Shown here in pieces: positions 26,049 through 28,891 of a stretch of 34,565 bases of DNA (position 1 is the stretch's first letter; the number at the start of each line of letters is the position of its first letter). Origin of the DNA: Bacteroidales bacterium (GTDB lineage: Bacteria; Bacteroidota; Bacteroidia; Bacteroidales; F082); NCBI GenBank assembly GCA_017548125.1, contig JAFYNK010000037.1, positions 1 to 34,565 of the forward strand. The letters are read 5' to 3'. The notes under the pieces were generated by a model. It made no database searches and was not told the DNA's origin. It saw nothing but the letters and a program-made list of their open reading frames with translations. The translations under genes were made by a program, and so were the position numbers.

Positions 26049-26088
26049 ATAAAAGACAAAAGGCAAAAGACAAAAGACAAAAGATTTT
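26049..26088. repeat. Heptamer repeat (CAAAAGA)n upstream of acyl-ACP synthetase
   Basis: About five 7-bp units (AAAAGAC/AAAAGGC variants). It overlaps the expected -33 region, so unit number would change TTTG-to-TAnnTTTG spacing in 7-bp steps. The rest of the gap to 26228 is AT-rich with nothing recognised. Confidence 0.7.
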
Positions 26089-26228: not shown

Positions 26229-26260
26229 TTTGGAGTTTTAATATATTATATATACTTTTG
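26229..26260 (+). promoter_or_regulatory. Predicted promoter of the three-gene cassette
   Basis: TTTG (26229-26232) and TACTTTTG (26253-26260) are 20 nt apart, matching the Bacteroidota consensus. The expected start near 26267 falls inside the palindrome at 26261-26278. The first ATG follows about 26 nt later. Confidence 0.6.
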
Positions 26261-26278
26261 CACATAATATTATATGTG
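26261..26278. promoter_or_regulatory. Candidate operator palindrome
   Basis: CACATAATATTATATGTG: arms CACATA and TATGTG with a 6-nt AT-only centre, directly abutting the -7 element and covering the predicted transcription start. The first gene of the cassette encodes a winged-HTH protein of the AbiEi-antitoxin type, a family known to autorepress by binding inverted repeats in its own promoter. Binding here is inference. Confidence 0.5.
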
Positions 26279-26292
26279 ATATAATTAGCAAA

Positions 26293-27255
26293 ATGAAATA
26301 TAATATCAATAAAATATCTGATTATCTAAATGAGCTGATTGGAAATGATATAAATCTTCTTCCGACAGAAAAAGAAGCTGTTGCAAAGTTGCCATTTACA
26401 CTTGCCAATAATTATGATTTCCACGATATGGAAATTATAGGTAATCGCATTACGGTTGCTGTACCAACTGAACCTAATGAATGCTCTCCTATGCAATTGG
26501 CGAAACATCAGGCAAAGATGATGGATATATTTGAGCATATCGTTGTGTTTGCATTGGATGAAATAGAATCATATAACCTAACTCGACTTACACGCGCTAG
26601 AGTGAATTTCATAGTTCCGAATAAGATTATCTTTATTCCAAGTTTGATGATGGTTCTTAAGGAAGTAAGAAAGAGCAATAAAACATTACCTGACACCATG
26701 CCTCCGGTTGCGCAGTTGATACTTCTTTATCATATCCAAGTGAAAAACCTTAATGGAATGACTACTGCGGAATTGGCAAATATTGTATCAATGGCATATC
26801 CGACTATCAATGTGGCTCTCCGTTGGTTAGAGAGAAATGATTTTATAGAACTCATGGGAAGAAAGCAAAAGTATGTAAAGTTTGCTGCGGATGGCAAAGA
26901 ACTTTGGAAAAAAGCACTCCCATTGATGACATCACCTATAGAATGCACTATATATGCAGATACAAAACCTCTTGAATCATTGCTGGCAAACGAAACAGCA
27001 ATGGGACATTACACAATGTTGGCAGAACCCAATAATCCTATTGTTGCCATCAGCAAAGCAACCGCAAAAAAATATAGCAGTTTGTTTAACAAACAATATG
27101 GCGACGTAAAAATTGAAGTTTGGAAGTATGCGCCTTCTCTTCTATCCGAAAACGAATATGTAGATCGTTTGTCTTTGTATTTATGTTTAAAGGATAGCAA
27201 TGATGAAAGAGTACAAATTGAATGTGACACTTTAATTGAAGAAATGAAATGGTAG
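26293..27255 (+). CDS. AbiEi-like winged-HTH antitoxin/transcriptional regulator
   Basis: A 320-aa soluble protein. The N-terminal ~130 residues are not recognised. A MarR-like winged helix lies at about 137-200 (PPVAQLILLYHIQ..., the recognition region MTTAELANIVSMAYPTINVALRWLER, wing DFIELMGRKQKYVKF). The C-terminal region (about 215-320) resembles the AbiEi C-terminal domain: ESLLANETAMGHYTMLAEP followed by a NNPIVAISKATAKKY strand. Together with the nucleotidyltransferase next door this suggests a type IV toxin-antitoxin or abortive-infection module, here with a longer N-terminus than typical AbiEi. Its stop overlaps the next ATG by 7 nt. A palindrome at its promoter suggests autorepression. 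A plain wHTH regulator of a nucleotidyltransferase is the alternative. Confidence 0.68.
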   Translation: MKYNINKISDYLNELIGNDINLLPTEKEAVAKLPFTLANNYDFHDMEIIGNRITVAVPTEPNECSPMQLAKHQAKMMDIFEHIVVFALDEIESYNLTRLTRARVNFIVPNKIIFIPSLMMVLKEVRKSNKTLPDTMPPVAQLILLYHIQVKNLNGMTTAELANIVSMAYPTINVALRWLERNDFIELMGRKQKYVKFAADGKELWKKALPLMTSPIECTIYADTKPLESLLANETAMGHYTMLAEPNNPIVAISKATAKKYSSLFNKQYGDVKIEVWKYAPSLLSENEYVDRLSLYLCLKDSNDERVQIECDTLIEEMKW

Positions 27256-28016
27256 CTGGACTTGACCGCTGGAGAGAATATTTCAGCGAATATAAAGATA
27301 AATATGTACTGATTGGAGGTGCTGCATGCAATCTTCTGGAAGAAGAATTAGATATGAACCCAAGAGCGACAAAAGACCTTGACCTCATACTTGTGGTAGA
27401 AGCACTTACACCTGACTTTGGCACACGCTTATGGGATTTTATCAAACATGCCAATTACATTAATAAAAATAAGGGAGAAAATGAACACAGGCATGAGTAT
27501 TACCGTTTTACGAATCCACAAGACAAGACATACCCTAAACAAATAGAACTGTTTGCACGTAACACAGGTATCTTAAATCTTCCCGAAGATGCCCACTTGG
27601 AACCAATAAGCTTAGGCGAAAATCTTTCCAGTCTGTCTGCAATACTGATGGATAATGATTATTATTCATTCACAATAGAACACAGCAGAAATATTGAAGA
27701 CATTCATATTGCCAATCCTGAGGCTCTTATATGTCTTAAAGCAAAGGCTTATATAGAAATGCTTGAAAGAAATGAAAAGAGTGAACAGGTTGACAATAGA
27801 GATATTGAAAAACATAAGAAAGATATATTCCGACTTGTCGCTATGCTTCCACAGGACTCGCATTTCAATCTGCCAGAAAAGTTGCGTAATGATATGAACA
27901 TCTTTGTACAAAGAATTGGCGATTTGCCAAACTCAGACTTCTTCAAAAGTGCAGGATTAAAAGGTATGAATGCAACTGTTCTTTTCGACCTTTTACAAAA
28001 AGCATTTATAGTATGA
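27249..28016 (+). CDS. AbiEii-like nucleotidyltransferase
   Basis: A 255-aa protein with a minimal nucleotidyltransferase-fold signature: VLIGGAACNLL (GG at residues 23-24), then TKDLDLIL with the metal-binding Asp pair D43 and D45. A possible third acidic residue follows in the strand KQIELFAR (about residue 99). The middle resembles the AbiEii/DUF1814 class (NPEALICLKAKAYIEM, a Lys-containing helix). AbiEii toxins are GTP-binding NTases that block growth, some by modifying tRNA 3' ends. Target specificity here is unknown. Translationally coupled on both sides: 7-nt overlap with the wHTH gene, 4-nt overlap (ATGA) with the phosphoesterase. Confidence 0.75.
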   Translation: MVAGLDRWREYFSEYKDKYVLIGGAACNLLEEELDMNPRATKDLDLILVVEALTPDFGTRLWDFIKHANYINKNKGENEHRHEYYRFTNPQDKTYPKQIELFARNTGILNLPEDAHLEPISLGENLSSLSAILMDNDYYSFTIEHSRNIEDIHIANPEALICLKAKAYIEMLERNEKSEQVDNRDIEKHKKDIFRLVAMLPQDSHFNLPEKLRNDMNIFVQRIGDLPNSDFFKSAGLKGMNATVLFDLLQKAFIV

Positions 28017-28819
28017 TTGTAAATTGCGACATAAACGAATATAATTTTCCAGAAGCTAAAAGCATTGTAGTTTCTGGAGATATTCATGGTGATTTCAATA
28101 TGCTAATCAACAAAGTCTGTGTACAATATCAGATGCAGGACACATTGATTATTGTGGCGGGAGATTGCGGTTTTGGTTTTGAAAGCAAAGGGTATTATGA
28201 TAACATCGTGAAACGAAATACCAAACGAATGAACGAAGCTAACAATTGGATTGTGTTTGTTCGTGGCAATCACGACAATCCAGCATACTTTGACGGAAAA
28301 TCTTTTATGCACAAAAGATTTATGGCAGTACCTGATTACTCCATACTTAAAGCATGTGATAAAACCATACTTTGTATCGGCGGAGCCATTTCCATTGACC
28401 GTAAATATCGTATGAATGCTTGGGAAGAGTATATCAAGAAACATAGAGGGCATACTGATGATGGAGCATTGGCAAAAAACGTTTATTGGACTGATGAAGC
28501 TCCAATGTTAAATATGGATAAATTACGTCAAATTAAAGATACATACAAGCTTAATGCTGTTGTAAGTCATACGGCACCATCTTTCTGTGAACTGCAAAAT
28601 AAGAACGGACTTTGCTGTTATGCCTATAACGATGAGAATCTGATATATGATGTTAACAACGAAAGATTGGTTATGGATGAGATACATAATATCTTAAAAG
28701 GTCAAAATCATCCAATCACTCACTGGTGCTACGGTCACTTCCATCAAAGTTTTCATGCTTCCATAGATGGAATTTTGTTTAAGATGCTTGATATAATGGA
28801 ACTTTATCAAATCAGGTAA
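28013..28819 (+). CDS. Calcineurin-like metallophosphoesterase
   Basis: A 268-aa PPP-type metallophosphoesterase with all five metal-site motifs: GDIHG (22-26), GDCGFG (50-55, where GDxVDRG is usual), GNHD (85-88), VSHTAP (184-189) and GHFH (241-244). There is no signal peptide, so it is cytoplasmic. Candidate substrates are phosphoproteins, nucleotides or an RNA/nucleotide adduct. The family alone does not tell. It is the last gene of the cassette, overlapping the nucleotidyltransferase by 4 nt, which argues for a stoichiometric or functional link. After the stop comes a heptamer repeat and then the SDR promoter. Confidence 0.85.
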   Translation: MIVNCDINEYNFPEAKSIVVSGDIHGDFNMLINKVCVQYQMQDTLIIVAGDCGFGFESKGYYDNIVKRNTKRMNEANNWIVFVRGNHDNPAYFDGKSFMHKRFMAVPDYSILKACDKTILCIGGAISIDRKYRMNAWEEYIKKHRGHTDDGALAKNVYWTDEAPMLNMDKLRQIKDTYKLNAVVSHTAPSFCELQNKNGLCCYAYNDENLIYDVNNERLVMDEIHNILKGQNHPITHWCYGHFHQSFHASIDGILFKMLDIMELYQIR

Positions 28820-28831
28820 TGACTAATGTCT

Positions 28832-28891
28832 AAAGTTCAAAGTTCAATGGTTCAAAGTTCAAAGCTCAATGGGTCAAAGTTCAGTGTTCAA
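28832..28891. repeat. AAAGTTC heptamer/octamer repeat
   Basis: Eight irregular units: AAAGTTC, AAAGTTC, AATGGTTC, AAAGTTC, AAAGCTC, AATGGGTC, AAAGTTC, AGTGTTC. It follows the phosphoesterase stop by 13 nt and closes the cassette on the right, as the CAAAAGA repeat closes it on the left. Confidence 0.7.

What the first reader, a model, noticed from the sequence alone, without database searches (positions are those of the whole stretch)
26229..28819. Three-gene AbiEi-like / nucleotidyltransferase / metallophosphoesterase cassette
Seen: one promoter, three genes overlapping by 7 and 4 nt, encoding a winged-HTH protein with an AbiEi-like C-terminus, an NTase with GG...DLD, and a PPP-family phosphoesterase with five intact metal motifs. 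Known: AbiEi/AbiEii pairs are type IV toxin-antitoxin or phage abortive-infection modules of two genes. A coupled phosphoesterase as third gene is not a standard component I know. Inference: the phosphoesterase may reverse or restrict the NTase's modification, or act as a second effector, giving a three-part defence or TA system. The unit sits between housekeeping genes and is bounded by simple repeats on both sides.
Basis: partly seen in the sequence, partly recalled or inferred. Interest (0 to 1): 0.8.

Follow-up and report, generated by a model that had tools for sequence, protein, structure and literature searches.

The report
Three-gene AbiE-like toxin-antitoxin with phosphatase
A bacterium related to gut bacteria carries an AbiE-like toxin-antitoxin pair whose operon has repeatedly taken up a phosphatase-type third gene, which may be the missing switch that turns such toxins back on.

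Summary
The three-gene unit is real: A (26293-27255, winged helix), B (27249-28016, nucleotidyltransferase), C (28013-28819, metallophosphoesterase, MPE), overlapping by 7 and 4 nt behind one Bacteroidetes-type promoter. B has the four AbiEii motifs, models as a pol-beta NTase and scores just under the Pfam AbiEii cut-off; A is only weakly AbiEi-like. In a sample of the window's order found with B alone, 14 of 23 AB loci (13 of 22 without the window) have an adjacent MPE, against 0 intact in 30 AbiEii loci of the same genomes. Two divergent MPE families fill the slot (after B or before A); one also joins a second wHTH-NTase family by overlap and, in one genome, as an in-frame fusion. MPE is thus a recurrent but accessory partner; both MPE families also stand alone. 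Best mechanism (inferred): A induces phosphorylation of B at Thr41, aligned with the phosphorylated Ser78/Thr39 of MenT toxins, and C removes it, the reactivating phosphatase postulated but not identified by Yu et al. 2020. Rival: C reverses B's nucleotide transfer. My searches found no description of this pairing. New variant of a known kind.

The parts
26051..26084 (.). simple repeat (AAAAGAC)4.9 upstream of the cassette
26229..26260 (+). promoter: -33 TTTG (26229-26232), 20 nt, -7 TACTTTTG (26253-26260)
   Evidence: same motif upstream of A in 25 of 44 AB regions
26261..26278 (.). inverted repeat CACATAATATTATATGTG just after the -7 box, possible operator for A
   Evidence: operator role inferred
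26293..27255 (+). gene A, 320 aa: N-terminal alpha/beta part, winged helix (about 138-197), C-terminal part; putative antitoxin/autorepressor
27249..28016 (+). gene B, 255 aa: AbiEii-like pol-beta nucleotidyltransferase, putative toxin; motifs G23G24, R39-A-T41-K-D43-L-D45, K164, K188-H-x-x-D192
27369..27371 (+). codon of Thr41 of B, predicted phospho-acceptor (aligned with MenT3 Ser78 / MenT1 Thr39)
   Evidence: role inferred
28013..28819 (+). gene C, 268 aa: calcineurin-like metallophosphoesterase, all metal ligands intact
28832..28891 (.). AAAGTTC-type repeat array downstream

Best explanation
ABC is a mobile three-gene, AbiE-like toxin-antitoxin unit. B is a nucleotidyltransferase toxin (by analogy with MenT it would add nucleotides to tRNA ends). 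A represses the operon and neutralises B, probably by inducing phosphorylation of Thr41 two residues before B's first catalytic Asp. C is a dedicated phosphatase that removes this phosphate and so lets B be switched back on (or keeps a pool of active B ready), for instance when A fails during phage infection. Shown here: the operon, its promoter, the AB core, the recurrent recruitment of divergent MPEs, an NTase-MPE fusion, invariance of Thr41 and of C's metal ligands. Inferred: toxicity, Thr41 phosphorylation, C's substrate, defence role.
For: Co-occurrence: MPE next to AB in 14 of 23 genomes of the order sample found with B alone (13 same strand, 1 divergent); 30 AbiEii (PF08843) loci fetched from the same genomes show no intact MPE within about 1.5 kb, one a 50-aa MPE-like scrap; Fisher p 3.4e-7, 4.0e-6 counting the scrap, 7.8e-7 without the window; loci were treated as independent although labels are clustered on the B tree. 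Own genome has 5 PF00149 genes at E<=1e-5. Separate scan by B: MPE in 22 of 35 loci (20 C-type, 2 T2-type; 5 cut or fragmentary; 8 without). C and T2 align over only 86 columns at 17% identity around metal motifs; neighbour labels need 14 changes on the B tree. T2 also overlaps by 4 nt (L248), or is fused in frame to (L254, 492 aa; deletion derivative L271), a second NTase family with R-x-T-x-D-V-D. Thr41: R-A-T-x-D-h-D in 24 of 24 aligned B, same register as MenT3 R76-x-S78-K79-D80-x-D82 and MenT1 R37-x-T39-R40-D41-x-D43 (PMC7205606, PMC11375011 passages); there phosphorylation inactivates the toxin, and the 2020 authors postulate an unidentified phosphatase for reactivation, PstP needing 12 h. 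C's best solved relatives by profile are Ser/Thr phosphatases (PP2A, E 0.006).
Against: The Ser/Thr at that place is a general family feature (15 of 16 canonical AbiEii rows examined have R.[ST].D.D), yet the control loci lack MPE, so the phosphorylation idea does not by itself explain why only AB and the second NTase family recruit MPE. 9 of 23 AB loci show no MPE (2 of these cut by contig ends), and 12 of 14 plasmid loci fetched show none. T2's best solved relative is the metallophosphoesterase MPPED2 (E 6e-4), an orthologue of a cAMP/cGMP-cleaving fly enzyme (the fly work is known to me from the opening of the abstract in the listing, the rest recalled), not a protein phosphatase. C-type MPE also follows a SMODS+SLATT pair and a GmrSD-type gene, and many C and T2 genes have no recognised partner. 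The known phosphatase-containing tripartite TA (KKP) uses the phosphatase as antitoxin, the opposite sign. A's AbiEi kinship is weak; B's fold match has E 1.8e-3 and is not to AbiEii/MenT.
Confidence: 0.38

Rival explanations
1. C reverses B's product: B transfers a nucleotide to a tRNA or protein and C, a phosphodiesterase or phosphatase, takes it off or trims the end, a second antitoxin or safety device.
For: MPEs include phosphodiesterases; T2 is nearest MPPED2; C-type MPE also sits behind a CD-NTase (SMODS)-SLATT pair (L063) and behind an AbiEii C-terminus (L051, 22.8 bits of 22.5), i.e. behind NTase-fold genes generally; KKP precedent for an antitoxic phosphatase.
Against: C's nearest solved relatives are phosphomonoesterases (weak E-values); MPE not seen at 9 of 23 AB loci, odd for an antitoxin; the GmrSD partner (L071) is no NTase by Pfam.
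Confidence: 0.27
2. C is a second effector or a nuclease/nucleotidase acting on phage nucleic acid or nucleotide pools, sharing only the promoter with AB.
For: C-type and T2 genes beside restriction systems (GmrSD L071; HsdM/HsdS-like neighbours of L265/L287, L272, L286, labelled by eye); SbcD among sub-threshold relatives.
Against: In-frame NTase-MPE fusion and 4-nt overlaps point to joint action with the NTase; no nuclease-specific feature was tested.
Confidence: 0.17
3. C and T2 are mobile hitchhikers (or independent house-keeping phosphatases) that insert next to defence genes; no functional link.
For: Many copies without recognised partner, some next to metabolic genes (L075-L077; T2 loci); 9 of 23 AB loci show no MPE; the cassette is mobile: the site is empty in 6 of 10 other same-genus loci and the relative G051 carries ABC elsewhere.
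Against: No intact MPE at 30 control AbiEii loci of the same genomes; overlaps of 1-4 nt in 17 of the 20 downstream MPEs tallied; fusion; low dN/dS of C.
Confidence: 0.13

Closest known systems
AbiE (AbiEi/AbiEii, DUF1814) type IV toxin-antitoxin systems
   Same: two overlapping genes, winged-helix regulator first, NTase second; motifs I-IV (G23G24, D43xD45, K164, D192) as defined in PMC3985639 (passages)
   Different: B scores 16.4 bits to PF08843 (cut-off 22.5) though one family member scores 28.5; motif I-II spacing 18 (x15 in AbiEii); motif IV KHxxD, not [KR]DxxD; A is 320 aa with an extra N-terminal part and no AbiEi Pfam hit; third gene
MenAT / TakA-TglT (neutralisation by toxin phosphorylation)
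   Same: R-x-[ST]-x-D-x-D with the phospho-acceptor Ser/Thr in register
   Different: no operonic phosphatase described in the passages read; phosphorylation of B not tested
KKP kinase-kinase-phosphatase tripartite TA (PMC11341870, passages)
   Same: three-gene TA with a phosphatase
   Different: PP2C-type phosphatase is the antitoxin and the toxins are kinases; no NTase
CBASS-type SMODS + SLATT pairs
   Same: a C-type MPE is the third gene in L063
   Different: B has no SMODS hit; no SLATT-type partner

Membership tests
AbiE type IV TA (DUF1814) | NTase with motifs I-IV, hG[GS]..DhD, K of motif III, D of motif IV | tested here: met
   G23G24, D43/D45, K164, D192 invariant in 24 aligned B; motifs from PMC3985639 passages; spacing and motif IV deviate in detail
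AbiE type IV TA (DUF1814) | Pfam AbiEii hit over gathering cut-off | tested here: inconclusive
   B 16.4 bits of 22.5; 10 of 24 aligned B, the window's included, at E<=0.01; one family member (G109) 28.5 bits, over cut-off; hhalign to 16 canonical AbiEii E 4.5e-4, probability 33%
AbiE type IV TA (DUF1814) | AbiEii/MenT-type fold | tested here: inconclusive
   B model pLDDT 88, pTM 0.88; best matches viral poly(A) synthases (prob 0.99-1.00; E 1.8e-3 and up), then Cid1 and CCA-adding enzymes at low probability = pol-beta NTases; none of the 50 rows shown is MenT or AbiEii
AbiE type IV TA (DUF1814) | AbiEi antitoxin: winged helix plus AbiEi C-terminal domain | tested here: inconclusive
   winged helix supported; hhalign to 15 upstream partners of canonical AbiEii E 1.7e-4, probability 49%; no AbiEi Pfam hit, none in the 50 fold rows shown
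AbiE type IV TA (DUF1814) | toxin arrests growth, antitoxin rescues | not testable with these tools
   needs expression
TA by toxin phosphorylation (MenAT/TakA-TglT) | phospho-acceptor Ser/Thr at -2 of the first catalytic Asp | tested here: met
   T41 in 24 of 24 aligned B, register
TA by toxin phosphorylation (MenAT/TakA-TglT) | antitoxin-dependent phosphorylation of the toxin | not testable with these tools
   Phos-tag or mass spectrometry needed
PPP protein phosphatases (C) | GDxHG, GDxVDRG, GNH[DE] signature (recalled) | tested here: not met
   GD[IL]HG and GNHD present; in place of GDxVDRG all 27 aligned sequences read AGDCGxGF
Calcineurin-like metallophosphoesterases (C) | Pfam Metallophos over cut-off, five metal motifs | tested here: met
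   33.2 bits of 21.5; ligands invariant
Known defence systems in PADLOC | PADLOC model hit | tested here: not met
   only AbiEii at 12.1 bits, E 0.016 for B; none for A or C at E<=1

The most novel reading that the evidence does not exclude
Metallophosphoesterases are a general, repeatedly recruited on/off switch for nucleotidyltransferase toxins: several NTase settings (AB, a second wHTH-NTase family including an NTase-MPE fusion, an AbiEii C-terminus, and a CD-NTase-SLATT pair) carry MPE genes because these enzymes reset the covalent state of the NTase (phospho-Thr) or of its product, making reversible NTase toxin systems.
Probability: 0.35. Interest if true: 0.8.

Novelty: new variant of a known kind. 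Interest (0 to 1): 0.62.

Why it matters
For NTase toxins neutralised by phosphorylation, how the toxin is ever reactivated is an open question: the 2020 TglT/TakA paper postulates an unidentified phosphatase (PMC7205606, passages). An operon that couples such an NTase to a phosphoesterase, with two divergent MPE families in the same role and one direct fusion to an NTase, gives a defined candidate and makes the question testable with three small proteins. It also adds a third component to AbiE-like systems; AbiE is called the fourth most abundant phage-defence system in PMC11375011 (passage).

Tried and rejected
Standard families: A and C match no PADLOC model at E<=1, B only AbiEii at 12.1 bits. 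NCBIfam gave only sub-threshold regulator, SbcD, YfcE and protein-phosphatase hits.

C as a plasmid gene: no match in 72,556 plasmid records. Single-protein scans of viral contigs with B and with C found no relatives; profile scans did. C beyond the window's order: in 395 genomes of a phylum sample only the window and one genome of the same order matched at E<=1e-30.

My first count of the MPE association looked only downstream and missed T2 genes upstream of A; corrected. The script found no B ORF in L188, L189, L191-L193 (probably because longer overlapping ORFs were preferred); they are unscored. L125 dropped out of the C tree. L002 (G051) and L010 give identical substitution counts for B and C, so I take them as one observation. 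L035 is missing from the table but C-positive. In one search the class lists were typed by hand. Neighbour names such as HsdS, HsdR, Fic, HipA were read by eye unless a Pfam call is named.

The idea that ABC is fixed at this locus: rejected; the ligase/SDR site is empty in 6 of the 10 other same-genus loci found (L290, L293, L294, L296, L297, L298); in the other 4 the ligase was not seen next to the SDR in the same arrangement. The relative G051 has the empty site and carries the cassette elsewhere.

Literature: searches. In the listings I saw no description of an AbiE/NTase toxin with an MPE gene; no paper of the held library contains AbiEii, phosphoesterase and operon together. I saw listings for most, passages for PMC7205606, PMC11375011, PMC3985639, PMC11341870, PMC7824862, PMC10419184, and abstract plus outline for PMC12287305. 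The library holds open-licence papers only, so this is no proof of absence.
Full report
Observation. The window holds three ORFs on the + strand: A 26293-27255 (320 aa), B 27249-28016 (255 aa) and C 28013-28819 (268 aa), overlapping by 7 and 4 nt. A Bacteroidetes-type promoter (TTTG, 20 nt, TACTTTTG; consensus recalled) lies at 26229-26260, followed by the inverted repeat CACATAATATTATATGTG (26261-26278); the motif recurs upstream of A in 25 of 44 AB regions examined, at -62, -64 or -75. Simple repeats flank the unit. Substitution rates against the nearest relative (77-85% identical) show purifying selection on all three genes.

The proteins. A has no Pfam hit over cut-off; members of its alignment hit MarR/Crp-type winged helices. 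Its model (pLDDT 86, pTM 0.61) has an N-terminal alpha/beta part, the winged helix and a C-terminal part; Foldseek returns mostly MarR/ArsR-type regulators and no AbiEi entry among the 50 rows shown, all with E above 0.01. Profile comparison with the genes upstream of 15 canonical AbiEii gives a weak match over the winged helix and the start of the C-terminal part (E 1.7e-4, probability 49%). B matches Pfam AbiEii below cut-off (16.4 of 22.5 bits); 10 of 24 aligned B match at E<=0.01 and one family member (genome G109) passes the cut-off with 28.5 bits. G23G24, R39, T41, D43, D45, K164 and D192 are invariant in the 24, which are the AbiEii motifs I-IV of PMC3985639 (passages), with longer motif I-II spacing and KHxxD for motif IV. 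The model (pLDDT 88, pTM 0.88) matches pol-beta nucleotidyltransferases (viral poly(A) synthases with probability 0.99-1.00 but E 1.8e-3 and up, then Cid1 and CCA-adding enzymes with low probability); no MenT/AbiEii entry is in the rows shown. C is a calcineurin-like metallophosphoesterase over the Pfam cut-off with all metal ligands invariant in 27 aligned sequences; its profile's nearest solved chains are PP2A and calcineurin, at E 0.006 and worse.

Co-occurrence. Searching with B alone in one genome per species gave 35 loci: A lies directly upstream in 32; L040 is cut at the left, in L042 and L044 B is a fragment. A C-type MPE follows B in 20 (in L032 broken into two frames), a different MPE family (here T2, 'QYASDLHLEF') in 2, 5 are cut or fragmentary after B, 8 show none, one of these with a 14-residue remnant of C. 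In an even sample of 393 genomes of the order, the window's own included, 23 carry B. Their neighbourhoods show an adjacent MPE in 14 of 23: C-type downstream in 3 (one the window), C-type divergent in 1, T2 downstream in 5 (one at 230 bp with a truncated B), T2 upstream of A by 51-117 bp in 5. Of the 9 without, 2 are cut by contig ends (L106, L119). Control: 30 of the PF08843 places in the same 23 genomes were fetched with up to 1.5 kb on each side (7 of 30 loci under 3.3 kb; 4 of the 23 genomes had no PF08843 match at E<=1e-5); none has an intact MPE, one has a 50-residue T2-like scrap. Flanks of that size do show the upstream T2 in AB loci (L083, L084, L087-L089). Fisher p = 3.4e-7, or 7.8e-7 without the window, treating loci as independent. 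By B clusters at 60% identity, 15 of 28 hold a member with MPE; this set mixes retrieval routes. Viral contigs by B profile: T2 in 6 of 14 loci, four distinct elements, five loci unscored. Two of the three gut 'phage' records with B were read and have AB-T2 (L207, L208). Plasmids: 49 records match B; of 14 loci fetched, L045 has T2 and L049 (Shinella) a third MPE type 160-230 bp after B; 12 show none, L206 among them with no B by the model. The association is therefore mainly a Bacteroidota trait in what I sampled.

Divergent MPEs and fusion. C and T2 profiles align over only 86 columns at 17% identity around the metal motifs (probability 84%): one superfamily, two families. On the B tree (59 rows, quick method) the neighbour labels need 14 changes (shuffled mean 30.7, so they are clustered and partly inherited); C and T2 branches interleave, which suggests that the slot was refilled more than once. 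T2 occurs in 59 of 393 genomes of the order (65 places at E<=1e-40). I read the neighbours of 44 of these 65: 10 are the AB loci above; 2 lie next to an A gene without a visible B (L243/L273; L250/L274, cut by the contig end); 4 belong to a second NTase family with its own winged-helix gene: overlapping the NTase by 4 nt (L248/L270), fused in frame to it in one 492-aa ORF whose NTase part reads R-V-T-F-D-V-D (L254/L269), as a deletion derivative that keeps 35 NTase residues and the MPE (L271), and upstream of a decayed wHTH-NTase pair (L276). Others lie in or near type I restriction genes (L265/L287, L272, L286, L281; by eye), and many have no recognised partner. C-type MPE occurs in 11 of 393 genomes of the order (E<=1e-30): 4 with AB, one behind SMODS plus SLATT_4 (L063), one behind GmrSD_N (L071), one with two further MPE genes (L068), four without recognised partner; and, from another search, behind an AbiEii C-terminus on a gut contig (L051). 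In the window's family 9 of 173 genomes carry C; seven of these (L003-L009) have no A or B next to C within the flanks.

Mobility. Between the ligase and SDR genes that flank ABC, 6 of the 10 other same-genus loci show the two genes next to each other without ABC, including G051, which carries an 80-85% identical ABC elsewhere.

Mechanism. In TglT (the shared residue number Ser78 shows it to be MenT3) the antitoxin leads to phosphorylation of Ser78 in S-R-T-S-K-D-F-D; [quoted passage not shown] In MenT1 the acceptor is T39 in R37-x-T39-R40-D41-x-D43 (PMC11375011, passages). B has R39-A-T41-K42-D43-L-D45 with T41 invariant. I therefore propose that A causes phosphorylation of T41 and C removes it. 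The residue is general in the family (15 of 16 canonical AbiEii rows examined), so it permits but does not prove the model; the alternative that C undoes B's nucleotide transfer is nearly as good, supported by T2's kinship to MPPED2 and by the SMODS-SLATT case. A tripartite kinase/phosphatase TA (KKP, PMC11341870, passages) shows that phosphatases do occur in such systems, there as antitoxin.

Verdict. Observation confirmed, interpretation partly supported and sharpened. Not a member of any named three-gene system that I know or found; AB is best called AbiE-like (motifs met, Pfam and fold tests inconclusive). New variant of a known kind; interest 0.62 because it gives a concrete candidate for a missing reactivating phosphatase, but function is untested.

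Noticed in passing
L254 802-2280 (G356): In-frame fusion of an NTase (R-V-T-F-D-V-D) to a T2-type metallophosphoesterase, 492 aa, overlapping a winged-helix gene by 17 nt; a deletion derivative is in L271.
   Followed up: partly
L063 3952-6195, minus strand: C-type MPE as third gene behind SMODS (CBASS-type CD-NTase) and SLATT_4, with a DndD-like ATPase ORF on the far side (last label by eye).
   Followed up: partly
L071 4052-7239, minus strand: C-type MPE directly behind a GmrSD_N (type IV restriction-like) gene.
   Followed up: partly
L068 2537-4802, minus strand: Three metallophosphoesterase genes in a row, overlapping by 4 nt each, the first C-type, the third identified by eye.
   Followed up: no
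L122-L135; hits H2-H9 and H13-H20: C-type MPE relatives (about 24-47% identity) in viral contigs and large phages, including Lak megaphages of Prevotella: possible counter-defence or acquired enzyme.
   Followed up: no
L105, L106, L108, L116, L119, L186: The AB pair lies inside or beside type I restriction operons (HsdS/HsdR-like neighbours, labelled by eye); L111 and L114 have Fic-like, L104 HipA-like neighbours.
   Followed up: partly
L078 (G052): A solo C-type MPE sits on the other side of the same SDR gene that flanks ABC in the window.
   Followed up: no
L011 6764-7735: A second, divergent A gene (28% identical) downstream of A-B-C without a B partner found, followed by an AAA-type ATPase ORF and a 253-aa ORF overlapping it by 4 nt (by eye).
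   Followed up: no
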